64,000 nt of DNA, from positions 8,715,384-8,779,383 of the forward strand of contig JASKMD010000015.1 in assembly GCA_030144725.1 (NCBI GenBank). Reading direction: 5' to 3'. This DNA comes from Haematococcus lacustris (lineage: Eukaryota; Chlorophyta; Chlorophyceae; Chlamydomonadales; Haematococcaceae). The translations under genes were made by a program, and so were the position numbers. How positions within the stretch are numbered: the stretch's first letter is position 1; the number at the start of each line of letters is the position of its first letter. Below are positions 1 through 62,409 of the stretch, in pieces. The notes under the pieces were generated by a model, which worked only from the letters and a program-made list of their open reading frames with translations, did no database searches and had not been told where the DNA came from.

Positions 1-409
1 GGGGCGTGCGGGAGGCAGCCCGCCGCTGAGCCCACCATCCCTTCTGCCACCCTCTTCCTTAATTCCTCGCTTTGAACTGGCTCCTCGTGTTCCCTACCAC
101 CTACCTCAACTCCCCGCTCCTCTTCCTCGGGCTCCTCCTCCTCGGCCTTTTCCCCCTCCTCCTCGGCCTCTTCTCCGTGCCCCCTACTGGCTACCCACAC
201 TCCCTCTTCCTCCTACACCACAACCCTCTCTTCCCTCTCCACGTTTCCGTGCCCCACTCTTCTGCCTTACTGCGCCCTGCCAGGCCCGCGGTGCTAACTG
301 CCCTCCATGCAGCCCCCTTCCTAAGCAGTCAGCTCAGCCCCTGGGCAGCTCCAAGTCTCCGGGACAGCCTACTCTGGATGTAGAGTCCTCCCCATGCCCA
401 TCCGCACCT
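1..409 (+). pseudogene. 3' end of a Ty3/gypsy gag, decayed and cut by the window edge
   Basis: This stretch precedes the pol reading frame and is Pro/Leu-rich in all plus frames. Around 268-300 one frame reads Y-C-A-L-P-G followed by a Cys, which looks like the remains of a CCHC zinc knuckle (C-x2-C-x4-H-x4-C) with the His lost and a stop just after it. That is the expected end of a nucleocapsid domain. The 5' part of the element lies outside the window. The assignment rests on position and a weak motif. Confidence 0.4.
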
Positions 410-3400
410 GTGTGCAGTGGTACTCCGCGTCACTCCTCGTCGCCTAGCCTGCCAGAGCCCCTAGTCATGTCGTCGCTCTCCGTGGACTCCAAGCCTTTCA
501 TCCTCCATGGTACCTTCTCTGGACACCGTGCTCGTTTCCTGCTAGACAGTGGTGCCACGGGCAACATTGTCAGCAGCCGCTTCTTGCAGCAAGCCGGCCT
601 GCGCATGGCGGGCAAGGCTGCTCCTGGCCGTCTGCTCCTTCCTGGGCCCTCCCCTTCCTACCTTCCCACCTACGAGCTTTCCCACTGCACGGTACACCTC
701 TCTACCTACCATGATCGGGTGCCCTTCGTTATGGCTGATATCAGCAATGCCGACTACGATGTGGTGTTGGGCAAGCCATGGCTCACAGCAAAGAATCCTG
801 ATATCGACTGGCCTCTTGAGCGCATCACTCTCCGCCATGCCGGGGCCGTACACACCCTAGCTGCTCCACCTTCTCCTGCCCCCAACCCCTCAGCCTCCCA
901 GCTGTTGTCACCTGCGCGCTTCCGCAAAGCCGCCCGCAAGGACGCCGTATTCGTGGCAGTTCTCACGGACTCAAGTCCTCCCCTTTCACCCTCTCCAGTT
1001 GTGCCCTCCTCCCACACTTCAACCTCAACCTCCCCGCCACCTGATCAACCACAGTGGCCCCCTTCTCTTCCCCCAAGCGCTACCGCCCTACTATCTGAGC
1101 ACATCGAGGTCTTTCCCAAGGAGCTTCCATCCGTACATGATCTACCACATCGCTCTGTTGATCATGTGATCCAGCTGGAGTCTGGCACCCCTCCCAACCG
1201 CCCTGTCTATCGCATGTCTCAAGAGGAGCTAGACGAGCTCAAGCGGCAGCTGGACGAACTCCTAGCCAAGGGCTACATCAGGCCATCCACGTCACCATTT
1301 GGCTCTGCAGTCCTCTTTGTGCGCAAGAAAGACGGGAGCCTGCGCTTGTGCGTAGACTACCGGGCCCTAAACCAGCTGACCATCAAGAACCGCTATCCCC
1401 TTCCCCGCATTGACGACCTCCTGGACCAGCTGGCTGGTGCTAGAGTCTTTTCCAAGATTGACCTCAAGTCTGGGTACCATCAGATCCGAGTGGCCGAGGC
1501 TGACATCCACAAGACAGCATTCCGTACCCGCTACGGCCACTATGAATACACCGTCATGCCATTTGGCCTGTGCAACGCTCCCGCCACCTTTCAACGCCTC
1601 ATGAATGACATCTTCCGCCCACACTTGGATCAGTTTGTACTAGTCTACCTGGACGACATTCTCATTTACTCCCGGTCTGAGGCTGAGCACCTGGAGCACC
1701 TCCGCACCGTTCTAGGCCTCCTTCGCCAATACCAGCTATATGCCAACCTCTCCAAGTGCGCCTTCTTCCTTCCCTCTATGGACTTCCTGGGTCACATCAT
1801 CTCGGCTGCGGGCATTCACCCTGACCCAGCTAAGATTAGTGCCATGGTTCAATGGCCGGTACCCCGCAATCTCAACGACCTCCGCTCCTTCCTCGGCAGT
1901 GCCAATTACTATCGTCGCCTCATCCACCACCATGCCCACCTCATCCTTCCCCTCACCAACCTCCTCAAGGCCGAGACACCATGGTCATGGGGCCCAGAAC
2001 AACAAGAGGCTTTTGAGCGTGTCAAAGCTGCTCTAGCCAGCAACCCCGTGGTGCGCCCCCCAGACTTCTCCCGGCCTTTTACCGTGAAGACGGATGCGTC
2101 GTTGTATGCCATTGGAGCAGTGCTATCACAACGGGACGACAATGGCGCCGAGTACGTTGTGGCATATGAGTCACGCAAGCTTCAGCCCGCGGAGATCAAC
2201 TACCCTACCCACGATCGCGAGCTACTCGCTGTGGTGCATGCCCTTACTCTTTGGCGTCACTACCTTCTGGGTCGGCCTTTCACCATTGAGACGGACAACT
2301 GCCCGATCACTCACATCATGACCCAACCGCATCTCAGCGCTCGACAACTTCGATGGACCCAACTGTTGGCCCCTTACTCCTTTACTCTGGTGCACAAGGC
2401 TGGCAAGACACACATTGTGCCAGATGCGCTCTCCCGACGGCCTGACTACCAGTTATCAGCCCTCTCCGTTGCCACCCCGGACTCTGCCTTCTTCGCTACC
2501 TATGACCACCATGCCCCACAAGACGCCGCCTATCAAGCAGCTTTCTCTCATACTCTTTCCCACAACCCCTCTGGCCCCTCCTCTTGGCACCTACGAGTCA
2601 TAGATGGGCGCTTATATACAGCTTCTGAGCCCCCCCGCCTCTACGTCCCAGCCTCACCTCTCCGCTCCCAGTTGCTCCATGAGGCGCATGATGCAGTCAC
2701 CTCGGCTCATCTAGGCCGTGCCAAAACCCTTGAACGCTTGCAGCGACACTTCTATTGGCCCCAAATGGAGCAGACAGTGCGCGAATATGTGAGGACCTGC
2801 GACCAGTGCCAACGGAACAAGGCCACCAACCAAGTTCCTCCTGGGCTGCTTCAACCTCTCCCCATTCCCAACCGCAACTGGCAACATGTCAGTATGGATT
2901 TCATCGGCCCCCTTCCTCCTACTTCTCACGGCTACGACATGGTCGTTACAGTTGTGGACAAGTTAAGCAAGATGTTACACCTCATCCCTACCACTGCCAC
3001 TGCCACCGCCCCTGACATCGCCAAGCTTTTCTTCGACCATGTTTTCAAGCACCATGGGCTACCTGAGGCAATTGTCTCTGACAGAGATCCAAAATTTACT
3101 TCGGACTTCTGGACATCCCTCTTTCACCTCACCGGCACTCGCCTACTCATGTCCTCTGCCTACCATCCCCAAACAGACGGGCAATCAGAGCGCGCCAACC
3201 GGACAGTGGAGGATATGCTACGACCATACCTCAACCACTACAAGACAGATTGGGACCAACATCTAGCCGCTGTGGAGTTTGCATACAATAGCTCCACCCA
3301 TGTTGGCACAGGCTTCTCCCCTTTCTACCTCAATTACGGCCATCACCCCCGCACACCTGAGGCTTTGTTGCAGCCCCCCTCCACTCTTGTTCCCAGCCCC

Positions 3401-4204
3401 GCTGCTGACGCCTTTGTCACCACCATGCGCTCCAACATCGACATAGCCAAGGCAGCCCTGCAGCGTGCGGTTGACAAGCAAAAGCAACAGGCGGATAAGC
3501 ACCGCCGTCATCTTGAGTTCAATGTGGGTGATAAGGTGCTCCTCTCTACTGCCACCCTTAACCTCAAGACGCCTAGTAACAGCGCCAAGCTACAACCCCG
3601 CTATGTTGGCCCCTTCAAGGTTCTGACCAAGATATCACCTGTGGCTTACAAGCTGGACCTACCCACCACGATGAGGATCACACCCACCTTCCACATCTCC
3701 AAGCTGCGGCCGTACCTTACCACCAGCTCCTTTCCCGACCGCCATGTTGACCTGCAACCACTACCCCAATTGGAGGACGGTGAGGAGTACTTCACCATTG
3801 AAACCATCTTGGGCCGACGCTGGAACGACTCCCAGCATGCTTTTCAATACCTTGTGAAGTGGAAGGGCTACGACGACTCCTTCAACTCGTGGGAATGGAG
3901 CCCAGCACTGGCCGAACAAGAGGACGTGGCTGCGATGATCAGAGAATACACGGCTCGCCACCACGTACCTCCAGACAAGCCGGTAGACGACGATCCTGCA
4001 TGCCAGATTTGCGCAAGCCGCGCTAGCCACCCTCCCATGTTACTTTGCGACAAGTGTGACCAAGGTTATCACATCACCTGCCTCACTCCACCTTTACGCA
4101 GTGTTCCTAAAGGAGCATGGCTATGTCATGAGTGCAGGCGGAACAGTGTACGGAGGTCACGACGGTTAAATGTTTCGGGGCGCAACATTTCAGGGAGGGG
4201 GTGA
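410..4204 (+). CDS. pol: Ty3/gypsy chromovirus Pol polyprotein with C-terminal chromodomain and PHD finger
   Basis: An open frame of about 1264 codons encodes a complete Pol. In order: a retropepsin-type aspartic protease (LLDSGAT near residue 45); reverse transcriptase with the YLDD box near residue 412; RNase H beginning at KTDAS near residue 562; integrase with an H-H-C-C zinc-binding region (HLGRAKTLE through CDQCQ) and a DDE core ([22 protein letters not shown]); a chromodomain near residues 1126-1165 ([17 protein letters not shown]); and a PHD finger near residues 1194-1243 ([23 protein letters not shown]). The first codon of the open frame is not a credible start; pol is probably made as a Gag-Pol fusion or by frameshifting. 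The frame has no internal stop, so the copy may be young. The stop codon TGA is also the first three bases of the LTR. A PHD finger after the chromodomain is unusual for chromoviruses. Confidence 0.93.
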
Positions 4205-11496: not shown

Positions 11497-11704
11497 TGCC
11501 GTGTCAGCTTACATCATCATGCATGTGGATCGCGCCAAACCGGCTGGTCCCTCCCAAGAGTGATTAGGCGGCAGTGTGGGGGTAGGCAGCCGCAGCATCG
11601 AGGACGTGGTCCTAGATACAGTGGTCCCTGGGGCTGCCCCTCACTGCCCTCACTGGCAGTCTGTACGTCTTGCCTCGACCTGTCTGTTAGCTTTTTAGCG
11701 TTAA

Positions 11705-11895
11705 GCTGTTAGTTTTAGTAAGGTGCCTAGTGGTCGTGGGGCTGGCACACGGAACGTGCCATCGATGTAGGGTTTGCAGTCATCAAGGGTACAACCGAGG
11801 ATGCTTCAATGTGATTGTAGCGGAGTGAGATTACCCACAGTCAAACATGTTGTTCCCCGTTAAATGAGTTTTGTTGACTGTTAGTCTGCTAGACG
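11705..11895 (+). repeat. Dispersed repeat, copy 1
   Basis: This copy is about 80% identical by eye to the reverse complement of 16725-16917, and partly similar to the reverse complement of 38866-38955. Shared words include gaggatgcttcaat, gtagcggagtgagattaccc and acatgttgttcc. Function is unknown; it could be the end of a DNA transposon or a SINE. Bases 11896-12618 hold no recognisable gene. Confidence 0.7.
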
Positions 11896-16349: not shown

Positions 16350-16362
16350 AAAAAGGGCGCAT

Positions 16363-16441
16363 CCCAAAGCGAGAATCATACCACTAGACCAAGTCCCCAG
16401 GGAATGGGGGACTACGGGAATCGAACCCGTGACCTCTTGCA
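16363..16441 (-). tRNA. Permuted tRNA-Pro (anticodon TGG): 3' half precedes 5' half
   Basis: On the minus strand the order is 3' half (16441-16406), a 7-nt linker attccct (16405-16399) and 5' half (16398-16363). The 5' half has GGGGACT acceptor strand, box A TGGTCTAGTGG, CTCGC anticodon stem and loop TTTGGG with anticodon TGG. The 3' half has GCAAG stem, AGGTC variable loop, T-arm ACGGG-TTCGATT-CCCGT with box B GGTTCGATTCC, and AGTCCCC pairing with GGGGACT; C73 is the usual eukaryotic tRNA-Pro discriminator. The halves would join at 37/38, the normal intron position. Outside the halves, gatgc-gccc (16364-16355) pairs with gggc-a-gcatc (16456-16447), as in a bulge-helix-bulge, and TTTTT (16354-16350) ends it like a Pol III terminator. 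One anticodon-stem pair is C-A. No CCA is encoded. The alternative is two tRNA fragments side by side. Confidence 0.75.
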
Positions 16442-16479
16442 TGTTTGATGCTGCCCAGGTTATGTGTGTTTGTTGCTAT

Positions 16480-16632
16480 GTCAAGGTTGTGTGTTACACA
16501 TATAATACATTTGTTATCTATAGTCTATCCTATATATATTATGTATATAGTATATAGTATATATATACCATAGTAGTGCTCTGTCAAGGTTGTGTGTTAC
16601 ACATATAATACATTTGTTATCTATAGTCTATC
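16480..16632. repeat. AT-rich tandem duplication
   Basis: A 51-bp unit beginning gtcaaggttgtgtgttacac occurs at 16480-16530 and 16583-16632, separated by (TA)-rich sequence. The AT content contrasts sharply with the GC-rich surroundings. It lies upstream of the permuted tRNA with respect to its transcription. Confidence 0.85.
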
Positions 16633-16724
16633 CGTAGTATCCGGAGCTTCCAGGGTCCGGATCTTCCAGGGTTGCACATATGGCAGAACATGGCTGCCTG
16701 CCGAGATCCTTTCTTTGCAGGACA

Positions 16725-16917
16725 GCAGCTAAGCAGGCCAACAAAACTCATTCAACAAGGAACAACATGTCGGCCTGTGGGTAATCTCACTCCGCTACAA
16801 TCATATTGAAGCATCCTCGGTCGCACCCTTAATGACTGCAAAACCCACTCTGGTGGCACTCGTTCAAGGGGCTAATCCCCCTTGACCACTGGGCTCCTCA
16901 TCAAAACTAACAGCTTT
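16725..16917 (-). repeat. Dispersed repeat, copy 2
   Basis: This is an inverted relative of 11705-11895. On the plus strand it reads gtgggtaatctcactccgc and further shared words. Confidence 0.7.
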
Positions 16918-38021: not shown

Positions 38022-39351
38022 ACTGCTGGGCGCTCACATGGTGGCAGACAACTTCGCAGTCAAGCTGCTGTGCTGTGATGTCAGCTGGTCTGGCTATGAC
38101 CGAGCTCCTTCAGCCTTGTGTTGCCCCGGCATGTGAGAGGCTGTGGTAGCTGGTGGCAAAGCAAGGGCTGCGGCAAGTTGATGCTGAATGACACCTGCCA
38201 GCCAGTGTCTTGTTGGCCAGGTGCAGTCAACTGTCGTACAATGGCTGCAGCCACACGGCGGACAACTCAGTTATTGGAGAAACATTGTCAGTTATTGCCG
38301 AGCGCTCACCTCATGGAGATATATGCAAGCTGGAGACTTTGCTACTTTCTTTTCAGTTGCCAGCAGACGGCAAATTCCAATGCTGACTCGTCCTACACTT
38401 TCAGCCGTACACGTTCAGTTGTTTCTTGTAACCGTGTACACAGACGTGACGCAGACTTAGCAGCAATGTTAAATAGCCTCAAACCTAGGCTTGCAATATC
38501 AGAGGAATTGCACAAGTCACCGAGCTCTCTCAACTCCCAGACCATGATTGTTCAACCTGAACGTGATCAAGCTTGTATGAAGCTGTGCTGAGCGCTGCTT
38601 GTTCGGCAGGTGTGGCCCTAGGTGACTCAAGCTGACTCGTGCATGAACTATGTGTATGTACCATTTTGTGTATGCTGTGGAAGAACTCGGCAGGTACACA
38701 GCTATGAGTAGAATGGCGTACAGCGTTCCTTTACTTTCAAGGGGTCAGAGAAAGCAGCAGAGGTGCAACTCTCGAGATCGCGGTATGCAGTCTCAGGCAC
38801 ATTAGGATCTGTTGCAAAGCCAGCCTGACTAATCCATTCACCATGGAGCCATGTGTAGCATGTGGGTAATCTCACGCAGCTTCAACTTCATCATAACATC
38901 ATTGATCGCACCCTTGACTACTGCAAACCCCATGCTGATGGCACGGCTCCTTCTAAACAACTGGGCACGCGCTCTTACATATCCAACCCACTGCCAGCCC
39001 TGACGCTTATAGCTATTTTGCCTCCATGGTATTGGGTTTAAATCATGAGTGAAATATGGGAAAAGTGGTCACGTATAGGGTGGGTGAGTGCCAAAATGCC
39101 AAGGGATGGGGCAATGGATGGTGAGGCTGGGTTGGGTGGGGCGACCAGCGTTCGCGAGGCGCGACAACGATTGCTGAGGACACCACAGAATCATGTCAAG
39201 ACATCCATGCAAGACAAACGAAGGTGATGGCAGAGGTCTGACATTGTGTTCGGACTTTCGTTATTGTCCCCCCATGAGCACACCAGTTCCGTTGTCATCT
39301 GTCATCAGGCTGTGTCACAAATAGCTCTCAGGCATCTGCCATCAGGCTGTC
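38022..39351. other. Intergenic region between UBA52 and PLMT, with dispersed repeat copy 3
   Basis: UBA52 and PLMT converge here. The segment 38866-38955 matches the dispersed repeat of 11705-11895 in inverted orientation (gtgggtaatctcac, atcgcacccttgactactgc). A short direct repeat of catctg-catcaggctgt-ctcac lies at 39297-39358. No gene is supported. Confidence 0.5.
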
Positions 39352-42300
39352 TCACAGATAGCTCTCAATAACTGCAGACATAGCATACAACAAGCTCCAA
39401 AACGCAGCCAGGCCCAGCACCAGCGAGTTCGCCAGCCCTCCGCAGCAGTCGGGTGGCAGCTGGTTTGCCAGCAGGGCCGCCACGCCCCACACACTGAGCG
39501 CGCTGCCGACGTATTGAGGGTGAGGCACCACGGAGAAGGGGAAGCCTGTGACCCAGGGCACGGTGTGGCCCAGCCGGGTGCCGTAGTACACCCCAACCTT
39601 GCCAATAGCCCTGCATGTGGTGTGGGCAGGGTAGAGAGGGTGGAGTGGGCAGGGTGGGCAGGGTGGGTGGGGTGGGCAGGGTGGGTGGGGTGGGTGGGGT
39701 GGGTGGGGTGGGCAGGGTGGGTGGGGTGGGTGGGGTGGGTGGGGTGGGTGGGGTGGGTGGGGTGGGTGGGGTGGGTGGGGTGGGTGGGGTGGGTGGGGTG
39801 GGTGGGGTGGGCAGGGTGGGTGGGGTGGGCAGGGTGGGCAGGGTGGGTGGGGTGGGCGGGGTGGGTGGGGTGGGGTGGGTGGGGTGGGTGGGGTGGGTGG
39901 GGTGGGTGGGGTGGGTGGGGTGGGCAGGGTGGGTGGGGTGGGCAGGGTGGGTGGGGTGGGTGGGGTGGGTGGGGTGGGTGGGGTGGGTGGGGTGGGTGGG
40001 GTGGGTGGGGTGGGTGGGGTGGGTGGGGTGGGTGGGGTGGGTGGGGTGGGTGGGGTGGGCAGGGTGGGTGGGGTGGGTGGGGTGGGTGGGGTGGGCAGGG
40101 TGGGTGGGGTGGGTGGGGTGGGCAGGGTGGGTGGGGTGGGTGGGGTGGGTGGGGTGGGTGGGGTGGGCAGGGTGGGCAGGGTGGGCAGGGTGGGTGGGGT
40201 GGGTGGGGTGGGTGGGGTGGGTGGGGTGGGTGGGGTGGGTGGGGTGGGTGGGGTGGGCAGGGTGGGTGGGGTGGGTGGGGTGGGTGGGGTGGGTGGGGTG
40301 GGCAGGGTGGGTGGGGTGGGTGGGGTGGGTGGGCAGGGTGGGTGGGGTGGGTGGGGTGGGTGGGGTGGGCAGGGTGGGTGGGGTGGGTGGGGTGGGTGGG
40401 GTGGGCAGGGTGGGTGGGGTGGGTGGGGTGGGCAGGGTGGGTGGGGTGGGTGGGGTGGGTGGGGTGGGCAGGGTGTGTGGGGTGGGTGGGGTGGGCAGGG
40501 TGGGTGGGGTGGGTGGGGTGGGTGGGGTGGGTGGGGTGGGCAGGGTGGGCAGGGTGGGCAGGGTGGGTGGGGTGGGTGGGGTGGGTGGGGTGGGTGGGGT
40601 GGGTGGGGTGGGTGGGGTGGGTGGGGTGGGTGGGGTGGGTGGGGTGGGCAGGGTGGGTGGGGTGGGTGGGGTGGGTGGGGTGGGTGGGGTGGGTGGGGTG
40701 GGCAGGGTGGGTGGGGTGGGTGGGGTGGGTGGGCAGGGTGGGCAGGGTGGGTGGGGTGGGTGGGGTGGGCAGGGTGGGCAGGGTGGGTGGGGTGGGTGGG
40801 GTGGGTGGGGTGGGTGGGGTGGGTGGGGTGGGTGGGGTGGGTGGGGTGGGTGGGGTGGGTGGGGTGGGCAGGGTGGGCAGGGTGGGTGGGGTGGGCGGGG
40901 TGGGTGGGGTGGGGTGGGTGGGGTGGGTGGGGTGGGTGGGGTGGGTGGGGTGGGTGGGGTGGGCAGGGTGGGTGGGGTGGGTGGGGTGGGTGGGGTGGGT
41001 GGGGTGGGTGGGGTGGGTGGGGTGGGTGGGGTGGGTGGGGTGGGCAGGGTGGGCAGGGTGGGTGGGGTGGGTGGGGTGGGCAGGGTGGGCAGGGTGGGTG
41101 GGGTGGGTGGGGTGGGTGGGGTGGGCAGGGTGGGCAGGGTGGGTGGGGTGGGTGGGGTGGGCAGGGTGGGCAGGGTGGGTGGGGTGGGTGGGGTGGGTGG
41201 GGTGGGTTGGGTGGGTTGGGTGGGTTGGGTGGGGTGGGTGGGGTGGGCAGGGTGGGTGGGGTGGGTGGGGTGGGTGGGGTGGGTGGGGTGGGTGGGGTGG
41301 GCAGGGTGGGTGGGGTGGGTGGGGTGGGTGGGGTGGGCAGGGTGGGCAGGGTGGGTGGGGTGGGTGGGGTGGGTGGGCAGGGTGGGTGGGGTGGGTGGGG
41401 TGGGCAGGGTGGGTGGGGTGGGTGGGGTGGGTGGGGTGGGTGGGGTGGGCAGGGTGGGCAGGGTGGGTGGGGTGGGTGGGGTGGGTGGGGTGGGTGGGGT
41501 GGGCAGGGTGGGTGGGGTGGGTGGGGTGGGTGGGGTGGGTGGGGTGGGTGGGGTGGGCAGGGTGGGTGGGGAGGGTGGGGTGGGTGGGGTGGGTGGGGTG
41601 GGCAGGGTGGGCAGGGTGGGTGGGGTGGGTGGGGTGGGTGGGGTGGGTTGGGTGGGTTGGGTGGGGTGGGTGGGTTGGGTGGGGTGGGTGGGGTGGGCAG
41701 GGTGGGTGGGGTGGGTGGGGTGGGTGGGGTGGGTGGGGTGGGTGGGGTGGGCAGGGTGGGCAGGGTGGGTGGGGTGGGTGGGGTGGGTGGGGTGGGCAGG
41801 GTGGGTGGGGTGGGTGGGGTGGGTGGGGTGGGTGGGGTGGGCAGGGTGGGTGGGGTGGGTGGGGTGGGTGGGGTGGGTGGGGTGGGCAGGGTGGGCAGGG
41901 TGGGTGGGGTGGGTGGGGTGGGTGGGGTGGGGTGGGTGGGGTGGGTGGGGTGGGTGGGGTGGGCAGGGTGGGTGGGGTGGGTGGGGTGGGCAGGGTGGGT
42001 GGGGTGGGCAGGGTGGGTGGGGTGGGCAGGGTGGGTGGGGTGGGTGGGGTGGGTGGGGTGGGTGGGGTGGGTGGGGTGGGCAGGGTGGGTGGGGTGGGTG
42101 GGGTGGGTGGGGTGGGCAGGGTGGGTGGGGTGGGTGGGGTGGGTGGGGTGGGTGGGGTGGGGAGGAAGGTGTGGGTGGTGTGGGCAGGGTGGGGCAGGCT
42201 GAGGGCAGGGACCAGGCTGAGAGCAGGTGCCAGTGGGACTCACTTGTAAATGCCCACGTTGAGGGCCTGGCCAAAGGAGAAGAGGAGGAGGGCGGCCAGC

Positions 42301-52880: not shown

Positions 52881-54161
52881 CTAGCCCACTCCCATGCCTT
52901 CCTTGCATGCCAGAAACTTCTTGCCAGGCAGCGCCTTGGTCGGCACGTCAGCCACCATGTCTGCCGTGGGGCAGTAGGTGAACTGCACTTCGCCTCGCCA
53001 CACACGCTCGCGCGCCATGTGGTGCATGACGGCTATGTGCTTGCTGCGCTGGGACTCCACTGGGTTCTTCAGCAACGCAACTGCTCCCTGGCTGTCGCAG
53101 AAGATGGGCACAGGCCCGCTGGTGGAGGTGAGCTCATGCATGAGCTTGCGGAGGAAGAGGGTCTCTCTTGTGGCGTCAGCAGCTGCCTGGTACTCAGCTT
53201 CGGTGGTTGAGGCAGCTACAGTGGTCTGTAGCTTGCTGCGCCAGGACACAGCAGCACCACTCAGGGAGAAGACGTACCCCGTAGTGCCGCGGTAGGAGAC
53301 CTGGTCACTGGCGTAGTCGCTGTCGCAATACCCGAGAAGCCCCCCCCGACTGCCGCCCCTGTACACCAACCCATCTGTTGCTGTTCGCTTGAGGTAGCGC
53401 AGCACCCCATGGGCTGCACGCTCGTGGTCAGCTGTGGGTGCCTGCATGAAACGGGTGAGCTGACTCACAGCCAGCGCAATGTCAGGACGTGTGCACGTAG
53501 AGGCATAGAGGAGGGCTCCCACCAGCTCACGGTAAGCATGGGTGTCAGCGTTGCTAAGCAGCTCACCCTCCTTGACTAGCTTGGTGCCAGCTTCCAGGGT
53601 GAGCTGCCTGCCATTGCACTCAGCCTTGCCAAATCTCTGCAACAGCTGCTCAATGTAACGCTGTTGGCTGAGCCGCAGTGTGCGTGATGCACGGTTGTAG
53701 CTGATGCGCATGCCCAAGAAACCCGCAGCTGGCCCCATGTCATGGACCTCGAAGGCCTGCTGCAGCTGCTGCTTGACTGCTTGCACAGCTGCTGCGTCTG
53801 ACGAGGCAAGAATGCAGTCATCGACATATACAAGCATGTGCACCATGCTGCCATTGCTGCTGCGCATGCTGAACAGACTCGGGTCAGCCGCTGAGGCGTG
53901 GAAGCCAATCAACTCTAGCTGCTTGCGAAGACACAGATACCAGGCACGTGGTGCCTGCTTAAGCCCATACACAGTCTTCAGCAGCTGACACACCTGCCCA
54001 CTGCCCACCTCATATCCCTCTGGCTGCTCAACATAGATCAGGGGGTCTGCCTCAGTGAGCTCGCTGTTCAGAAAAGTTGTCTTGAAGTCTATTTGCCACA
54101 GGCCCCAATTCCGCTGCACTGCCAGGGCGAAGATGAAGCGCTGTGTTGTGTGCATCACCAC
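52881..54161 (-). pseudogene. Ty1/copia Pol, C-terminal part (reverse transcriptase and RNase H), 5'-truncated
   Basis: The frame encodes LWQIDFKTTFLNSELTE, YGLKQAPRAWYLCLRKQLE, the YVDD catalytic box (MLVYVDDCILAS), the connection region YRELVGALLYAS-CTRPDIA, and an RNase H with GYCDSDYASD, STTEAEYQAA and CDSQGAVALLKNP, then the terminal HIAVMHHMARERV block. Protease, integrase and the first half of reverse transcriptase are missing. The coding stops exactly where the GAA tract and 3' end of the Dualen LINE begin (about 54165), so the LINE insertion split this element. The remaining 426 codons are open, so decay is recent. Confidence 0.92.
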
Positions 54162-54293
54162 TGGAGCAGAAGAAGAAGAAGAAGAAGAAGAAGAAGAAGA
54201 CTACGCCGGTATTCACCGGCGTGCATTAAGGGAGGAGCAACCGCCTGGGGCGCGGCCTGCTCCCACCATCAAGCTCGAGAAGTAACCGACCCC

Positions 54294-57200
54294 CTACCCC
54301 CCCCCCTTTCTAATAGCTCTTAGTCTGTAACTTGTTTTGGCAATGGTGTGGGCTGCTTCTACCGCATGTCTCGTGAGCTTGTTTAGTAGCTTGGTGGCGT
54401 TGCTTTGAGTGATACCCAGGGCCATGAGGTGTTGACGTGTGTGTGTTTCATAAGTAATACCACCTATACCCAGTAGGATTGGTCTGATCTCAACCATGTG
54501 GCCTATTTTTCGCATGGTGTGTGCCAATTTGTTATGTTGATTCAGGGCCTTGTCCAGTTGCTCCATCCACCTCGAGTCCGCACAGTATTTGATTTCTACG
54601 ATGGTGATCCTTTTAATGGCTTTGCCTCGTTTGCCCGTCATCTTTTGTGGCGCCACCACGAGTATGTCTGGTCTGGTAGTGTTTTTGGTCGCTGTTGGTT
54701 TCAGGCCGAGTGCCCGTAGTGTGGTGCGTAGTGTGTCGTTAGGGAGGTCAAGGTTTTCTCTTGCGCCCTTCTCCCAGCTGCCGGTGTCCGCAAACCGGAT
54801 GCACCCGCCCAGGGTTCCTTTGCTGATGGCTTTGGCGATGAGGCGGCCAGCACCGTTATGCCTTTCTTGCACGAGCGGCAGGGTCTCGCTGCAGCCCGAT
54901 AGGAGGTGTGTGGCACTGTCGGCCTCCCCACAGAGCGGGCAGCGGTCGTCTGTCGCCTGCTTCCAACGCATAGCTAGCTTTTGGTTGTAGAGCCCTCCAG
55001 TACGGTAGAGTAGGGCGGTCCTTTGCGCGGGGGTGGAGATGGTCGCATCGGTCATCACTCTTTCGCCCGCTCCTTTGGCCGCGGCTTTGGTGATATCTTG
55101 GGTCATCTGGTAGTAGATGCTGTCTTGGTTGGCGAGACCTAACTTGTGCTTGCTGTGCATGTGTGCTCGCACGCTTTGTCGGCAGTCCGGCAGCGGGGCG
55201 AGGGTTTCGCTATCGGTCCCGTGGTTGAGCCAGATGCCCCTCTCTTTAGGTATGGTCGGGTGGTACCCTAGAGTGTTTGCCTGCTCCGGGTGTAGCGCTG
55301 CGTGTTTAGCAAGGGCATCTGCGCCTTCGTTGCCGATGATGCCCGAGTGTGCCCGGACTTTGTAGAACTGGATCGTGTCGGGGCTGTCGATGATGAGGGT
55401 GGCGATGTCCGTCAGGATGTCGTTGTGTCTATGATTGATAAGGGACATCGGGTTAGCGAGAGCTCGACGGATCTGGTAGAGAGAGCAGAGGCTGTCGGTG
55501 GCGATGCGTCTGGCCCCCGCTTTGAGTGCCGCGTGTATCGCTGTGAGTTCTGCCTTGTTGATGGTGTTGTTTTCTAGGTCGTTCATCGCAATGGTAAGAA
55601 GGGCGTTGCTTTCCGGGATATAGACCCCCGCCCCGACGCGCGCCGGGTCTGGCTCGGATGTCTTAATGCAGCTACCGTCAGTGTACGCTACTGTGGTCCA
55701 TTCGGTGATGGCCATCCGTGGTAGCGTGGTGGAGTGGTGTGTGAGTTGGTGTTGGCTGCGTGTGTGCCCCAGCGTGGGTAGAGTCCTGTCGAGCGGGAGG
55801 CGGAGGTGCTGTTTGTGGCCATTGGGGAGAGTGGCTGGCTGTTTTTGATTGTGGGGTCTGCGAAGGAGAGGGTGTGTCTCCCTGTCCGGGTGTAGGGCAG
55901 TGGCTGTGCTAGCCATCCATCCTTGTGGGTTGCCTTTCGTGGTGAGTAGTTGCCCTGCCTCATTCCATATGACGTAGACGAGGAGGGTGGCGTGTTTGCC
56001 AAGTTTGGAGCAGTTGGTATTGGTGAGGGGTATGCTGGCCAGGTGCTGGCAGTACTCTGGGTAGCGTCTTAGGGTGTCAATGTGTTTGGGGTAGGAGATG
56101 CCCTTTTTACCAGGGATTAACATGATGGTGGCCATGGCCTCCTCCTGGTGTGCTGAGTGTATAGCATGGTTGACGCATTTCAAGGCCACCGCATCATCGG
56201 CTGGTACATTCCATGTGGATAGCCCAGTGTGGCGTACCAGTAGGCAGTTGTGGTGTGCCCCAAAGGCCGTGTCATTGATGTCAGGGCTCCAGTAGGTAGT
56301 GGTTTCCGGTCTAACTGTGAGTGGATCAGCCCACCTTTGGACGGTACTTGGAAAGCTGCGTGTGGTGTGTAGGGTGGTGAGGGCTTTGTCTTGTGCCAGT
56401 CTCAAGGGGTGGCGGCTGCTCTGTGTGTCATGTCTCCTGAGGAGGGCCACCAGTTCTGTGGCCCGGTTGCGTGTGTGTGGTGTGTGTTGTAGCCAAGCGT
56501 GTAGGTGTTGGTGTTGTTGTTTGGTTAGAAGGCCTATTGTGCGGCCCGACTCATCGTGAACCGTTACATGTTGCACTAGGTCGTGCTTGGGCATGATGGG
56601 CTCTCCCGTGCTGAGGTTCATCGCGGGGGTGGTCATGTGGGGGTGCAGTTGGAGGAAGGTTTCGCATTTGCCCGTCCCGACGATGTCCGTCTGCGGGTTG
56701 ATGGGGTACGTGTGGAAGGTGGCCTTCGAGTGAAGGTTGGTGCACCGGGGTAGCCAGGTGTGCGGGTCCGGCAGTCCCTGCCGGGTGTGTGTTGGCAGCT
56801 GTGTGTCAGGCCGCGCGTATCTAGCTTCTTGTATCCTCTTATTTTCCTCTTCATAGTCGCTGCGTCGCGCCAGGTAGTCCAGGTGTGCCGTGATGAGAGG
56901 TGCCGGTTCGAGGGTGGGGCGCCAGTGAACTCGTATGAGGTCCGAGTGCGCTGACTGACGCATAGTCGTTTTGAACTCGTTGCTGCCAAACTTGCATATT
57001 GGGCACAGCCAGTGGCCTGGTTCTTTGTGTCCCGACAGGAGGGCTTCCTCAAGGCAGGCTGGGTGGTAGGCCCTCTTGCAGTTGTGGCACATTGGGCTGT
57101 CTCCTCTTGGTAGCCAGCATAGCTCACATGTGCATACGTCTTTAGCCTCTTCCCTGCTGATGGGTTCTATGTGTGTGGGTGTATAGCCTTCTTCTGCACA

Positions 57201-57569
57201 TAGTGGTAATGCCCATTTATCTATGATTGTGGGCTTCCAATGCACCTTGTAGTAGCTTTCTTTGTTGATGCCGTCCCATTGCCATCCATCTATGCTGGTG
57301 ATGGCCTCTTGGTGGCCGTACATGGCCCCTAGTATGCTGCCTAGGTCCTTGGGTTTACAACGGCAGGCTTTATCCACCTTCCAGCTGGAGAGCCCTGGGA
57401 GGTCGAGGCCTATTATGTGCACTATATCCTCCGGGATGGTTTGTATCTGTCTGCCCTCAGTGTTCCGTTTCGTGCCCGCCTTGGGTCGGGCGGGTTTTGT
57501 TGGGGGCGGTTGGGTTTCCCTGTTCTCTCGCTTTAGCAGCCGGGAGCTACTCTTGATGTTGTGTTGCAT
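54294..57569 (-). CDS. Dualen second open frame: PHD finger, RNase H and restriction-like endonuclease
   Basis: The frame starts at a true ATG at 57569, overlapping the end of the upstream frame by 23 nt, and runs 1091 codons. A PHD finger lies near residues 147-195 (CTCELCWLPRGDSPMCHNC, WLCPICKFG). RNase H shows YTDGS, NKAELTAIHAALK, ATDSL and HSGIIGNEGADALAKH. The C-terminus has a zinc site CPLCGEADSATHLLSGC and the restriction-like core RPDILVV with EIKY, the PD-(D/E)xK pattern. RNase H removes template RNA; the endonuclease can nick target DNA for priming. Translation probably needs reinitiation or a frameshift at the overlap. The frame is intact. Confidence 0.85.
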   Translation of the reverse strand: MQHNIKSSSRLLKRENRETQPPPTKPARPKAGTKRNTEGRQIQTIPEDIVHIIGLDLPGLSSWKVDKACRCKPKDLGSILGAMYGHQEAITSIDGWQWDGINKESYYKVHWKPTIIDKWALPLCAEEGYTPTHIEPISREEAKDVCTCELCWLPRGDSPMCHNCKRAYHPACLEEALLSGHKEPGHWLCPICKFGSNEFKTTMRQSAHSDLIRVHWRPTLEPAPLITAHLDYLARRSDYEEENKRIQEARYARPDTQLPTHTRQGLPDPHTWLPRCTNLHSKATFHTYPINPQTDIVGTGKCETFLQLHPHMTTPAMNLSTGEPIMPKHDLVQHVTVHDESGRTIGLLTKQQHQHLHAWLQHTPHTRNRATELVALLRRHDTQSSRHPLRLAQDKALTTLHTTRSFPSTVQRWADPLTVRPETTTYWSPDINDTAFGAHHNCLLVRHTGLSTWNVPADDAVALKCVNHAIHSAHQEEAMATIMLIPGKKGISYPKHIDTLRRYPEYCQHLASIPLTNTNCSKLGKHATLLVYVIWNEAGQLLTTKGNPQGWMASTATALHPDRETHPLLRRPHNQKQPATLPNGHKQHLRLPLDRTLPTLGHTRSQHQLTHHSTTLPRMAITEWTTVAYTDGSCIKTSEPDPARVGAGVYIPESNALLTIAMNDLENNTINKAELTAIHAALKAGARRIATDSLCSLYQIRRALANPMSLINHRHNDILTDIATLIIDSPDTIQFYKVRAHSGIIGNEGADALAKHAALHPEQANTLGYHPTIPKERGIWLNHGTDSETLAPLPDCRQSVRAHMHSKHKLGLANQDSIYYQMTQDITKAAAKGAGERVMTDATISTPAQRTALLYRTGGLYNQKLAMRWKQATDDRCPLCGEADSATHLLSGCSETLPLVQERHNGAGRLIAKAISKGTLGGCIRFADTGSWEKGARENLDLPNDTLRTTLRALGLKPTATKNTTRPDILVVAPQKMTGKRGKAIKRITIVEIKYCADSRWMEQLDKALNQHNKLAHTMRKIGHMVEIRPILLGIGGITYETHTRQHLMALGITQSNATKLLNKLTRHAVEAAHTIAKTSYRLRAIRKGGG

Positions 57570-60500
57570 GTTCGGTCACGTGCGTCGCTTCGGTCGGTGT
57601 GGGCTTCTTGGCAGTCACATACGCCCTAATATCAGCGTAGCGGTGTTTTGTGTCTTCCTCGACGTCGGTTGGTGCAAGCTCCGTCAGACCCGCGGCCCAT
57701 GGTTTAATGAGTCTTTGCGCAGCGGGCAGGTCTAGGGTGGTGTCTCGTTTGGCTGCGATGTCTTTCGCTTCTGTTGTGGTTGGGCATCTGTCCTGGGTCG
57801 CCATGGTCGTTAGTCTGTTGAGGGCGATATAGTGTTTTTGTTTAACTTTGTTGTGGAAGCGTTCTTTAAGCATCTTTCCTGATATGATGTAGGTATGGCC
57901 AGCGATGGTGTGTTGGAGCTCTGTGGCATGTCGGATGCCCAAGCTTTTGAGGCACGTCATGCAAGCACTAACTATGTCGAGTGGAAGGGGGCTGGTATTC
58001 TGTGTGATGAGTTGTCCAAGCAGTTTGGTTTCCTTATGGTAGAGTTCTTGTCCTTCCTGGGTGGCAGTGAGCTGCGCCGTGGTGGCATGTAGGAGTTGTC
58101 TGGCTCGTAGGGTGTGTCGCAGCATAATGAGCATGCGATGTCCATGCTTGGCAGCTTGAGCGTAGAGCCAAGTGATCTGTTTGTGTAGCATGCATCTGGT
58201 TATGTGGGCATGTGTGGTGTCTGTGGACTGGAGGCTGTGTAGGAGGGCTGTAGTGTTTCTGGTATGGTACTCTTTGGCTGTTGAGCTGATGCCAAGGCCG
58301 AGCTTGTCGATGTCCTCCCTGACAACGGCATTGGGTGTGCCTAGTGGGAGTCTAAGTTTTTTCTTAATACATTGATTAATTGCTCTGTCGTAGAGGTCTA
58401 GGTCTCCCGGTGTGCATGGGGCTACGCAGAACACTCCGGGAAATTAAGGATGGACCAAACTCCCGACCTCGTTTTTTTGACCCAGTTTCTTTTCCGATGG
58501 AAAGATCAGAGATCATAACAAGAAGTCTTCTCTTGAACCATCGTGGAACTCTCGCTGGTTGAAGAGTTGTACCGTGTACAAAACAGTTTTTCTGAGTTTT
58601 GCGACATGCCACTTGGCATAGCTCCTCAACCGCTGAGAGTTGCACAATGGTGCAAGATGACAGCTTCACTTGTGATGTCCAAGCATTCCAATTAAAAAGG
58701 AACGGGGTCAAAATAACGAGGTCTAGGATTTTGGCAATCCTTAATTTCCCGGAGTGAAGCTATAGGCTAGACTGGGGATGATGGCTGTCTTGATGATGTG
58801 GATGGCTTGTCTGGCGCTAGCGAATGAGCGTCGTAGTCTTTCTAGCTTCTGTCTGAGTTGTGTCATCATGGCTATGTGTTGTGGTTTCCAGTTGAGCGTC
58901 ATGGTAAGTAAGACACCAAGGTAAGTGAAGGGGGAGGTCGGTTTGAGGTAGGTGACAGGTTTCCCTTGTAGCGTTACGGCTTGCAGTTCTCTACGGGCTT
59001 GCTTTTCCGCTTCTGCCATGGTGCTGCATCTGCCGGATTGGTGCGCTTTGTGGAGCGCCGCTGTGGCGAGGGTTTTGCTGTGGGATACGATTAGGTGGCC
59101 CCAATCCGAGTAGGCGGAGAGCTTGTCTGCCTGACAGCGTAGGTTGCTGATCGAGTTGCATAGGATAGCGATGTCATCGGCGTAATCGATGCTGCCGATT
59201 GTAAATCGCCCGGCACTGTCGGTTGTGTCGGATGTAAATTTGTACCCCCTCGCTCCTACTTGGAGCCATCGCAGTAAGGGTTCGATGTAGATGAGGAACA
59301 GGAAGGGTGAGAGTGAGTCGCCCTGGATGGTGCCCCGGTCTACAGGTACCGGGTCGGTGGGGCCGTAGGGAGTTCTAAAGCGCGTTGTAGCGCCCGTGTA
59401 CAGGTCCTTCACCGCGTCTGTGGCGTCGGTGGGGAAGCCAAGGTCGTGCATGATCCATAGCAGTTTGTCTTGGCAGGTGGTGTTGAAGGCACTAGTGAAG
59501 TCGACCAGTAGCGCATAGATATCTACTTTGGCTAGCTTGGCGTCTTCCAGGGCCATGACCAACATTTGGAGCTGTTGTGTGGTGTCCCTATGGGAGCGGA
59601 AGCCTGCTTGGCAGTTACTTAACATCCCGTTAGCCTCAGCATACTCGTACAGCGCCTTGGTTATGAGGCTGGTCCAGAGTTTGTAGATGGTATTGGCCAG
59701 CCCAACAGGTCTGTAGGCGTTGAGGTCTGTTTCTTGGCCCTTGTCCTTGTAGAGCAGGCAGGTGTCACTGGTTTTCCATGTTGTGGGTGTGCAGCCAGTG
59801 GCCCACATGATGATGAATAGTTGGTGTATGGTGTCCCTCATCTCCCATGGCAGCATCTTGATGATCTCGTTTTCAATGCCGTCTGGGCCAGGCGCTTTGC
59901 CCCCCGATAGTCTGCTGATGCATTCTTGAAACCCTGCTCTGTCCATGATGGCTGTGTGCATCCAGTGTATATTTTGGCAGGTGTGCAACGTGAAGGGGTC
60001 CACGGCTTTGGGGCGGGTCCAGGGGTAATTTCTGGTCTGTGTGTTTGTGTAGTGGCCTGTTTTGGGAGTCGGCGGCGTGAGCTTTTGTCTGTAGGCGGCG
60101 GTGATAATCCGGTTGAGGTCGGCCGGGGCGGTGCAGATGTTCTTGGTATCGGGGTCGGCTAGTGCCTGCAGTCCTTTGTGGTCGGTGCGAGAAGGGCGTA
60201 GTATGTATTTGTTGGCTTTTTTGGGTTGGGTGCTGATGAGGTGTTGCATTCTGAGACGCGCCTGTGCAATGGCAAGTGCGGAGTCGTCGTCATCTAGCTT
60301 GTGGATTTGGTCGCGATAGGAGTTGGTCAGCTGGGCGAGCGCGGCTTGCACGAAATTTTCGGTTGTACCGTCGCCCTGGCGTGCTTGCACCGCCTCCCTT
60401 ACCTCCGCGTTGATCGTGTCTGTCTCTGGGAGTAGGTCATCGATAGACGGGTGGACGTTGTTTTGTTTGTAGAACATTCTAGCCTTCCGGCTGAGTTCTC

Positions 60501-62409
60501 TGGTGGTTTTGAGCTTCTTCCCCAGTGCCAGTCTGATCTTGCACATGCTCCTGCGTTGGTAATGCTGGCCTCCTCTGGTCAATGTCTTGGTGTTGCATGT
60601 CTGCATGGCAGTTCCCCTGCAGGTTTCCAGGAGCGTTGTGAGCATGGTGGCTGCGGTGTCGACAGCTTCTCTAGCCGGGAGGCCTGCAACTAGTGTCAAG
60701 CGTTGTGGTTGCTGTGGGCTGGCCTTGTCTAGTGTGGTCAGGAAGTGGGTAGCGTCTGTGTACATGGGAGCTAGGTATGCTGTCAGTTGTGCATGCAGTT
60801 GTGGAGCGCCTGAGCTGGGTTGTTGCACTCCAAGCCGGTATGCTTCCCTATCCTTGTTGGTGATTGGGGTGGTGAGAATGGTGTGGCTGTGTTTTAAGGG
60901 TTGATGTGTGGCTGCTAGATCTAGGCCCAGTCTGGTAGTGGTGAGTGTGGCGGTGAGCGGTCTGTGGTCGCTGAGGTACGCGTTTGTGTCGACGTGTGTG
61001 CGATGCCCAGGGCCTTGTCTCGCGTCGCGCGTCAAGATGGCGTCGATGCGGCTGTTGCAGTGTGGTTGCTGGTAGGTCCAGGCCCGGTCGCCTGGGTCAG
61101 CTTCAGATAGGCGCATCTCTGTGGCGAACTCCCTCATCATGTGGTCTTGTGTGTATTCAGTGTGTTCGGAGCGGTCCTCTGCCCTCATCGTGGCGTTGAT
61201 GTCTCCCGCCAGAATGAGTGAGCCGGGCAGGTGTCCCGTGGCTGTTCGTATGTGTTCTTGCATCTTTCTCCTTAATGGGATCGCGTCGTCGTTGTTCCCT
61301 GACGGCCAGTACGTGGCAACGAGTGTAAGTTCCTCGCTTTGCCGTTGGCGGAGGCTTAGGATGACGCATCGGGTGTTTACATCCGCATCTGTACACGGCG
61401 GCAGCATGGTGGTTTGCATCTGGATAGCTAGATCGTGTCTGATGCCAATGAGGACCTCACTATGGCCTTCGTGACGGTGGACGGTGTAGTTGGGCATGAC
61501 CCTCTTCAGCCAGCCAGAGCTAGGTTTGTTGCTCTTGGGTTGGGTCATAGTCTCAGTGAGGATCAAGATGTCCGGGCTATGTTTGTGCACCAGGTTTAGG
61601 ACCTCGTTTCTAGATCTGCATAGGCCTCTGACATTGAAGGTTGTGAGGGTGATGTGTTGCCTGTTGTGGGTTGCTTGGGGCAGTTCGGTTGGGGGGTTAT
61701 TGTGTTGGCTCGTGCGAGAGTCATTGTCCGGCGTGGTTTGTGGTGTCTCAGCTAAGGCGGGGTTCAGCCTTGTGGTGTGGGCTCCGGTAGTGGGTTTGCG
61801 GAGGTATTGGGACATGAGGGTTTGTGTGTGCGTGTCGTTGCGGTGTGCCTTGGTGGCTCGTACCCGCTTAGCGGACGGGCCAATGTTGGTATCGACACGC
61901 GTGGTGGGTCGATTGGTACGCGGCGTACCTGAGGGGACTGGCGGGCGGAGGGTAACAGTGGGAATGTCCCGGCGCTGTCGCGACCGGGCAGGTTCCTCGT
62001 GTAATGGAGTGTCCTCTACTGTAGTGTTGCGCTTGGTGTCTAGTGTAGAGTTCTTGTCGGCGTCAATGGTAGTCACGGACGGTGGGGCGAGTATCTCTCC
62101 TACCTCTATGTGGTTGGTGAGATCAATCGGGTCAGTGTGATCTTGAAAGTGTGCTGCTAGTGCTGATGCGGTGGTGGCCTCCAACGGGTCCGCTATCCAG
62201 ATCTCCCTCCTAACGAACCTTGTGTGTCTCACGTTGCCTGTGCAGATGGTGAGCAAGTTCCCTTGGAGGCGTCCCCAGTCGTTAGGTGTGGAGAGTGGTT
62301 TTGGCACACGGTTGAATGAGTCCAGCTGGTACCAGCCTTGTTGTGTGTGTTTAATGACAGTTGCATGGTGGTGTGATAGCAAGATAACAACATCAGTGTG
62401 TGTCGCCCC
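57547..62409 (-). pseudogene. Dualen first open frame, main part: protease His half, APE endonuclease and reverse transcriptase, interrupted
   Basis: Coding segments 62409-58757 and 58431-57547 belong together; the 325-bp MITE between them adds a stop. From the start: HHHATVIKHTQQGWYQLDSF (His box of the Josephin-like cysteine protease); APE endonuclease with FNVRGL, LILTET, LAGDINATM, SRIDAILT and YLSDHRPL; reverse transcriptase with GGKAPGPDGIENE, LVDFTSAFNT, GTIQGDSLSPFLF, SIDYADDIAIL and the thumb; then a helical region with IRHATELQHTIAGH. All catalytic motifs are intact, so this copy was lost through insertions rather than slow decay. Confidence 0.85.
58432..58756. mobile_element. MITE inserted in the Dualen reverse-transcriptase frame
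   Basis: The ends cactccgggaaattaagga are inverted copies, and similarity continues for about 60 bp (words gacctcgtt and ttttgaccc). The flanking dinucleotide AA occurs on both sides as a 2-bp target duplication. Removing the element and one AA rejoins the reading frame (YSF joined to CVAPC). There is no coding capacity. Confidence 0.88.

What the first reader, a model, noticed from the sequence alone, without database searches (positions are those of the whole stretch)
16350..16456. A permuted tRNA-Pro(UGG) gene in a chlorophycean alga
The 3' half of tRNA-Pro lies upstream of its 5' half, with only a 7-nt linker joining the acceptor ends. All tRNA parts are present once, box B comes before box A, a T5 terminator follows, and the outer flanks are complementary (gatgc-gccc with gggc-a-gcatc), as needed for a bulge-helix-bulge cut at 37/38. 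Permuted tRNA genes are known from Cyanidioschyzon and a few prasinophyte and nucleomorph genomes. I do not know of a described one in this group.
Basis: partly seen in the sequence, partly recalled or inferred. Interest (0 to 1): 0.88.

Follow-up and report, generated by a model that had tools for sequence, protein, structure and literature searches.

The report
Back-to-front proline tRNA genes, Haematococcus
In the astaxanthin-making green alga Haematococcus lacustris, the genes found for two of its three kinds of proline transfer RNA are written back to front, so the cell must cut and re-join the RNA, probably through a circle, before it can be used.

Summary
On the minus strand of 16350-16456, U38-C73 of tRNA-Pro(UGG) precedes G1-G37, with a 7-nt linker, a bulge-helix-bulge (BHB) at 37/38 and a T5 terminator. 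The host is Haematococcus lacustris (Chlorophyceae). It is no lone oddity. A 5'-half pattern hits 46 places in the 308-Mb assembly, all read: 5 are ordinary tRNA-Pro(CGG) genes; 27 Pro(AGG) and 10 Pro(UGG) genes are permuted and intact; 4 more are damaged. No ordinary-order Pro(AGG) or Pro(UGG) gene was found within the limits of the pattern searches. Bodies barely vary (10 of 10 UGG and 25 of 27 AGG identical) while leaders, linkers and trailers diverge. The BHB is kept by compensatory change: leader A opposite U34, leader U opposite A34 (35 of 37); GGGC/GCCC against GGGU/ACCC between recent duplicates. None of 20,000 leader-trailer re-pairings pairs as well. 'Two truncated copies' is rejected. 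Known kind: type II permuted tRNA gene. Not seen in the papers searched: a chlorophycean case, a proline case, a family of dozens. Untested: transcripts, circular intermediate, aminoacylation. All 10 UGG genes carry a C29-A41 mismatch.

The parts
16442..16456 (-). Leader next to the 3' half, GGGCAGCATCAAACA: outer-helix arm GGGC-A-GCA(U), central-helix arm CAAA, first two nt (CA) of the 3' bulge
   Evidence: family-wide register
16406..16441 (-). 3' half of tRNA-Pro(UGG), U38 to C73 (box B in the T arm); CCA not encoded; A41 faces C29
16399..16405 (-). 7-nt intervening sequence ATTCCCT joining C73 to G1 (7-18 nt in the 37 intact copies)
16363..16398 (-). 5' half of tRNA-Pro(UGG), G1 to G37 (box A in the D arm, anticodon UGG)
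16355..16362 (-). Trailer ATGCGCCC: last nt of the 5' bulge (A) and outer-helix arm UGC-GCCC
16350..16354 (-). TTTTT, RNA polymerase III terminator-like run
   Evidence: TTTT within 25 nt of the junction in 35 of 37 intact family members
16499..16507 (-). TATA-like TATTATATG 66 nt upstream of U38 in an AT-rich stretch; candidate upstream promoter (inferred)
   Evidence: no TATA-like word in the 75 nt upstream of many AGG copies
16468..16475 (-). CAACAAAC 34 nt upstream of U38; candidate transcription-start motif by analogy with plant tRNA genes (recalled, inferred)

Best explanation
The locus is a working, circularly permuted tRNA-Pro(UGG) gene with its junction at 37/38 (type II), one of a large family that supplies two of the three proline isoacceptors of Haematococcus lacustris. 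Polymerase III transcribes leader, 3' half, linker, 5' half and trailer as one RNA ending at the T run (inferred). The leader pairs with nt 32-35 and with the trailer, making a BHB with bulges GG^A and CA^U (shown by sequence and covariation). The tRNA-splicing endonuclease cuts after G37 and before U38, and the ligase joins G37 to U38, giving a circle (inferred from work on other algae). RNase P and tRNase Z remove the linker, and CCA is added (inferred). This copy arose by duplication of an already permuted gene (its block has two relatives on the same contig), not by a fresh break-up of an ordinary gene here.
For: Order, complete cloverleaf, linker and terminator. Pattern search of the 308-Mb assembly: 46 five-prime halves, 0 in the backwards control. 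All 46 were read: 5 ordinary intronless Pro(CGG), 37 intact permuted (27 AGG, 10 UGG), 4 damaged. Bodies identical in 10 of 10 UGG and 25 of 27 AGG over 26 distinct leader/trailer pairs. Compensatory change at nt 34 in 35 of 37. Central helix 85 of 88 standard pairs in register against 19-49 of 88 when slid by 1-4 nt. Outer helix: 0 of 20,000 re-pairings reach the observed mean energy. Window copy GGGC/GCCC against GGGU/ACCC in its two block duplicates. TTTT within 25 nt in 35 of 37. Model R1 of the permuted shape scores 11 of 11 intact permuted loci given at 74-87 bits and ordinary tRNA genes at 25.2 bits or less; Pro sequences of this family are in the model, so their scores are partly by construction.
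Against: No RNA data. C29-A41 mismatch in all 10 UGG genes. Two of 10 UGG genes have a U-U in the central helix and two of 27 AGG genes an A-C. In 6 of 26 distinct leader/trailer pairs the outer pairing is weak, -3.3 to -5.0 kcal/mol. Promoter elements are not uniform. Some copies may be alleles or duplicated haplotypes, since another assembly of the species is 151 Mb (PMC7617258, abstract start in the listing). Related copies share sequence by descent, so invariance alone is weak, and the re-pairing test does not correct for relatedness.
Confidence: 0.88

Rival explanations
1. Dead remnant: tandem ordinary tRNA-Pro genes lost their outer halves and the block is not used.
For: C29-A41 mismatch. 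Four damaged copies exist (L043, L054, L064, L075). The flanks look like the two ends of a 37/38 intron, as the duplication-and-loss model predicts (PMC3978253, section 10, part 1).
Against: No ordinary Pro(UGG) or Pro(AGG) gene was found to do the work. 10 of 10 UGG bodies are identical and share A41. The BHB is held by compensatory change. As an account of how the family first arose it remains open; as an account of this locus it fails.
Confidence: 0.05
2. A mobile, tRNA-derived repeat (SINE-like) that happens to carry the halves in permuted order and has spread without a tRNA function.
For: Many copies, some clustered; the window copy lies in a multi-kb duplicated block. The genome holds tRNA-like SINE-type repeats with a similar 3' part.
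Against: No shared word of 8 nt or more, such as a target-site repeat, between the two flanks examined. Leaders, linkers and trailers differ widely while tRNA letters do not. The SINE-like copies read lack the Pro 5' half. A selfish repeat has no reason to keep the BHB register.
Confidence: 0.04
3. A Y-RNA-like non-coding RNA with a permuted tRNA-like module, like bacterial YrlA.
For: Relaxed Rfam search: YrlA 19.5 bits over 16372-16437, E 0.099, because that family also runs T arm - acceptor - D arm.
Against: Far under the gathering score of 69 bits; only model positions 24-84 of 114 match; nuclear genome of an alga; a full cloverleaf with anticodon and splicing motif.
Confidence: 0.02

Closest known systems
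Type II permuted tRNA genes of prasinophytes (Ostreococcus, Micromonas) and of the Bigelowiella nucleomorph (PMC3978253, Table 1; original Maruyama et al. 2010 not read)
   Same: 3' half first, junction 37/38 in all but one of those genes, BHB at the termini, short linker, AT-rich upstream in some.
   Different: Those are Ser, Leu, Cys, Arg, Asn or iMet, 2 to 6 genes per genome; here proline, two isoacceptors, 37 intact copies in the assembly, in class Chlorophyceae, and with an outer leader-trailer helix of -6.2 kcal/mol or better in 20 of 26 distinct copies, where the review describes hBH for green algae.
Permuted tRNA genes of Cyanidioschyzon merolae (PMC3978253, sections 4-6)
   Same: Includes type II genes, two of them with a 7-bp intervening sequence; CCA not encoded; circular intermediate and aminoacylation shown there.
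   Different: Red alga; junctions at four kinds of site; at most two copies of one gene (Gly CCC) in Table 1.
Permuted tRNA genes of Auxenochlorella (PMC12636532 and PMC12633428, passages read; Supplementary Fig. S1 not available)
   Same: Green alga (trebouxiophyte), found because tRNAscan-SE gave an incomplete set.
   Different: Other class; which tRNAs and how many could not be seen.
Ordinary tRNA-Pro(CGG) of the same alga (L073, L074, L076-L078)
   Same: Nearly the same 5' half (23 of the 24 pattern letters).
   Different: Ordinary order, no intron, five copies.

Membership tests
Type II circularly permuted tRNA gene | 3' half upstream of 5' half in one stretch | tested here: met
   37 intact copies genome-wide
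Type II circularly permuted tRNA gene | Re-joined halves give a complete, standard cloverleaf | tested here: met
   ARAGORN tRNA-Pro(tgg); one mismatch C29-A41
Type II circularly permuted tRNA gene | BHB at the 37/38 junction, formed by leader, 5' half and trailer | tested here: met
   register and compensatory change; definition of BHB from PMC4090602 (passage)
Type II circularly permuted tRNA gene | Short intervening sequence (1-74 nt in Table 1 of PMC3978253) without terminator | tested here: met
   7 nt here, 7-18 nt in the 37 intact copies; no TTTT between the halves of the window copy
Type II circularly permuted tRNA gene | Polymerase III terminator after the 5' half | tested here: met
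   TTTTT at 16354-16350; 35 of 37 copies have TTTT within 25 nt
Type II circularly permuted tRNA gene | TATA-like or AT-rich upstream region | tested here: inconclusive
   present at the window locus, not uniform in the family
Type II circularly permuted tRNA gene | Linear precursor, circular intermediate, mature charged tRNA in cells | not testable with these tools
   needs RNA
Ordinary tRNA-Pro gene, with or without intron | 5' half upstream of 3' half | tested here: not met
   no 3' half found within 140 nt downstream of the 5' half, and no second 5' half upstream of the 3' half, in 37 of 37 intact copies, as far as the fetched stretches reach: about 250 nt in those read as 3-kb loci, less than 100 nt upstream in the 301-nt stretches
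YrlA (RF02553) | Match over the curated gathering score | tested here: not met
   19.5 against 69 bits

The most novel reading that the evidence does not exclude
In H. lacustris all cytosolic tRNA-Pro(AGG) and tRNA-Pro(UGG), hence the reading of CCU, CCC and CCA codons, depends on permuted genes and a circular RNA intermediate. The permuted form has replaced the ordinary genes and has then been amplified into a multigene family kept by selection on the splicing motif, while Pro(CGG) stayed ordinary. The C29-A41 mismatch fixed in all 10 intact UGG copies may be tolerated or repaired at the RNA level.
Probability: 0.7. Interest if true: 0.8.

Novelty: new member of a known kind. Interest (0 to 1): 0.7.

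Why it matters
Permuted tRNA genes are known from few genomes, at most two copies of one gene in the 2014 table. A family of dozens, in a cultured alga of industrial use, with an ordinary sister isoacceptor (CGG) as built-in control, makes open questions testable: how such genes arise, why they persist, how polymerase III reads inverted A and B boxes, and whether the circular intermediate has a use. It also warns that tRNA gene counts made by programs that expect the ordinary order may miss whole isoacceptors here.

Tried and rejected
Chance alignment: rejected. Ordinary gene missed by the programs: rejected, the order is inverted. Tandem truncated copies: rejected as a description of the present state. 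YrlA-like RNA: rejected. Viral or prokaryote contigs holding the same permuted order: gapped patterns in viral contigs and genome contigs gave 0, and the plain 5' half in viral contigs gave 0; these collections are not expected to hold the alga. Are other isotypes permuted? Not settled: the pattern typed for Cys found nothing; the one for initiator Met found 4 places, 1 in the backwards control, and the one place read is no tRNA; the one for Ser did not complete. Ordinary-order Ala, Phe, Lys, Asn, Thr, Arg and Pro(CGG) genes do exist; RF00005 scored only 63 of 6533 first-look candidates, so there is no census. Pol III promoter: candidate elements only. The 3'-half pattern gave 396 places (8 in the backwards control), of which 100 are listed: 32 exact. 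By comparing coordinates, 26 of these 32 lie in the permuted AGG genes; the other 6 were read and are not tRNA-Pro. Two mismatched places outside the known genes were read too, neither a tRNA-Pro; the rest were not read. A DNA search of the genome with the whole 136-nt locus did not complete.

Full report
What is there. The feature lies on the minus strand of window 16350-16456. In transcription order: leader ...GGGCAGCATCAAACA; U38-C73 (36 nt); linker AUUCCCU (7 nt); G1-G37 (36 nt, anticodon UGG); AUGCGCCC; UUUUU. Put in the usual order the halves give a 72-nt tRNA-Pro(TGG) that ARAGORN accepts: 7-bp acceptor, 5-bp T stem, a weak D stem that the ordinary Pro(CGG) genes share, and an anticodon stem with C29 facing A41. 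ARAGORN and Rfam at gathering scores find nothing in the window, as expected for inverted order. With relaxed thresholds Rfam's highest-scoring hit is YrlA (19.5 bits, gathering 69), a family whose tRNA-like part also runs T arm, acceptor, D arm; the other hit is a tmRNA T arm (13.1 bits).

Chance. A conserved part of each half occurs once in 64 kb with 3 mismatches allowed; shuffles expect 0.01 and 0.00. A permuted-order ARAGORN scan gave 7 rows, 5 of them this locus, against at most 1 row in each of 10 Markov shuffles. For this locus alone the pairing of leader with trailer is only moderately unusual: 328 of 20,000 random flanks from the GC-rich window and 35 of 20,000 shuffles do as well.

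Host. The Ty3 ORF at window 2-4201 matches nine Haematococcus lacustris proteins at 97-100% identity as its nine best hits, one of them at 100% over 87% on a contig of 10,026,745 bases. Contig lengths of the window's assembly (4,970,000; 8,246,294; 7,935,624; 10,026,745) recur among the contig lengths of those records. The window is G000:C49:8715384-8779383 of 307,914,905 bases in 597 contigs, and C49 has 10,026,745 bases. Class Chlorophyceae is stated in PMC5864939 (abstract start, listing).

Genome-wide. The 24-nt 5'-half pattern with up to 2 mismatches hits 46 places, 0 in the backwards control. I read all 46 (20 as loci, 26 fetched and read; table). Five (L073, L074, L076-L078) are ordinary, intronless tRNA-Pro(CGG) genes. 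Of the other 41, 27 Pro(AGG) and 10 Pro(UGG) have a complete 3' half just upstream; four are damaged: L043, L054 and L064 keep only part of a 3' half upstream and L075 none. In one search the script accepted 36; L044, with one changed letter, was added, making 37. In none of the 37 was a 3' half found within 140 nt downstream or a second 5' half upstream (the upstream check reaches about 250 nt in the 3-kb loci but less than 100 nt in the 301-nt stretches). From the 3' side, 32 exact matches to the AGG 3' half are listed: by coordinates 26 lie in these permuted genes, and the other 6 were read and are not tRNA-Pro (five look like tRNA-derived repeats, one is unclassified). So no ordinary-order Pro(AGG) or Pro(UGG) gene was found. 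Limits: up to 2 mismatches; only 100 of 396 three-prime places are listed and most mismatched ones were not read; the assembly may hold both haplotypes, and another assembly of the species has 151 Mb (PMC7617258, abstract start in a listing).

Selection. The 10 UGG bodies are identical and 25 of 27 AGG bodies are identical, while the 37 genes have 26 distinct leader/trailer pairs and linkers of 7-18 nt. One register gives a BHB as defined in PMC4090602 (passage), with the first two anticodon letters in the central 4-bp helix: nt 32-35 pair with leader -6 to -3, the 5' bulge is G36 G37 ^ N and the 3' bulge NN ^ U38. Counts: 35-C in 37 of 37; 34-A in 10 of 10 UGG and 34-U in 25 of 27 AGG (A-C in 2), a compensatory switch between isoacceptors; 33-A or G in 35 of 37 (U-U in 2 UGG); 32-A or G in 37 of 37. 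So 33 of 37 genes have four standard pairs. Over 22 distinct sets, 85 of 88 pairs are standard in this register against 19-49 of 88 when slid by 1-4 nt. Outer pairing: mean duplex energy of own leader with own trailer -8.6 kcal/mol against -5.5 for other partners; 0 of 20,000 permutations reach it; the test does not correct for relatedness. Not all copies pair well there: L033, L040, L063, L070, L072 and L044 give only -3.3 to -5.0, the other 20 of 26 distinct pairs -6.2 or better. The window gene and two copies on the same contig (L035, L036; 95-97% alike over long stretches) differ by GGGC/GCCC against GGGU/ACCC, a two-sided change in the outer helix among recent duplicates. TTTT follows within 25 nt in 35 of 37. 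A covariance model of the permuted shape (R1) gives 74-87 bits to the 11 intact permuted loci tested, 44 to damaged L043 and at most 25.2 to ordinary tRNA genes (the model contains Pro sequences of this family), and nothing above 8.1 bits elsewhere in the window.

Mechanism. Shown by sequence and covariation: the order, the BHB, the terminator, and the maintenance of the family. Inferred from work on other algae (PMC3978253, sections 5, 6 and 8 read): transcription from upstream elements because boxes A and B are inverted; cleavage and ligation at 37/38 to a circle; removal of the linker by RNase P and tRNase Z; addition of CCA. A TATA-like element 66 nt and a CAACAAAC 34 nt upstream of U38 are candidates at this locus, but such elements are not uniform across the family. 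The C29-A41 mismatch in 10 of 10 UGG genes, absent from all 27 AGG genes, is either tolerated or repaired in the RNA; nothing here tells which.

Origin. The flanks resemble the two ends of a 37/38 intron, which fits the duplication-and-loss model (PMC3978253, section 10, part 1), but no ordinary parent gene was found in the assembly as searched, and Pro(CGG) is intronless. The window copy itself is a segmental duplicate of an already permuted gene.

Literature. PMC3978253, Table 1 (section 4, part 1 read): 34 permuted genes to 2014, none for proline, and C. reinhardtii is said to have none (section 10, part 1). PMC4494063 (passages): two tRNA-Ser genes in one further nucleomorph. PMC12633428 and PMC12636532 (passages): permuted tRNA genes in Auxenochlorella, details in a supplement not available to me. 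PMC7272542 (passages): 277 tRNAs called with tRNAscan-SE in H. lacustris NIES-144; PMC7617258 (passages): the word 'permuted' does not occur. PMC4033280 (passages) lists the same groups; PMC12301720 (passages): no word beginning with 'permut'. Searches of the open-licence PMC library listed no paper that by title, abstract start or the passages read reports a permuted tRNA gene in Chlorophyceae or for proline; several of these lists were cut (40 of 45, 20 of 41, 20 of 165, 10 of 85 papers shown), and subscription papers, bioRxiv and supplements were not covered. Meanings of anticodons (AGG read as IGG) and the plant CAA motif are recalled.

Verdict. Real, well supported by its family, mechanistically of a known kind, and new in extent and in host as far as the searched papers go.

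Noticed in passing
L035, L036, L037, L063, L065-L069, L071 (tRNA-Pro(UGG) genes): C29-A41 mismatch in the anticodon stem, fixed in 10 of 10 intact UGG copies, with G41 in all 27 intact AGG copies; possible tolerated mismatch or RNA-level repair.
   Followed up: partly
L043, L054, L064, L075: Four tRNA-Pro copies with a broken or missing 3' half; L043 and L054 have a CT-rich upstream stretch similar to that of intact L040, which suggests recombination.
   Followed up: partly
L079, L080, L082, L083, L085 and perhaps other places: Apparently a tRNA-derived (SINE-like) repeat with box A before box B and a 3' part close to that of tRNA-Pro (GCGAGAGGTYACGGGTTC); many one-mismatch places are listed, few were read.
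   Followed up: partly
window 16739-16916, 11703-11876, 38835-38944: Interspersed repeat, 74-81% alike, unidentified.
   Followed up: no
window 16474-16530 and 16577-16633: 57-nt direct repeat (98%) separated by a TATATA-rich spacer, just upstream of the permuted gene.
   Followed up: partly
window 2-4201: Ty3-type retrotransposon ORF with chromodomain and PHD finger, 97-100% identical to its nine best H. lacustris hits, which suggests recent activity.
   Followed up: no
window 52881-62487: Copia-type reverse transcriptase ORF, an RNase H ORF, and a LINE-like ORF with endonuclease and reverse transcriptase, all on the minus strand.
   Followed up: no
window 39638-42194: 2.6-kb array of a 9-nt G-rich unit (GGGTGGGGT), open in several reading frames.
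   Followed up: no
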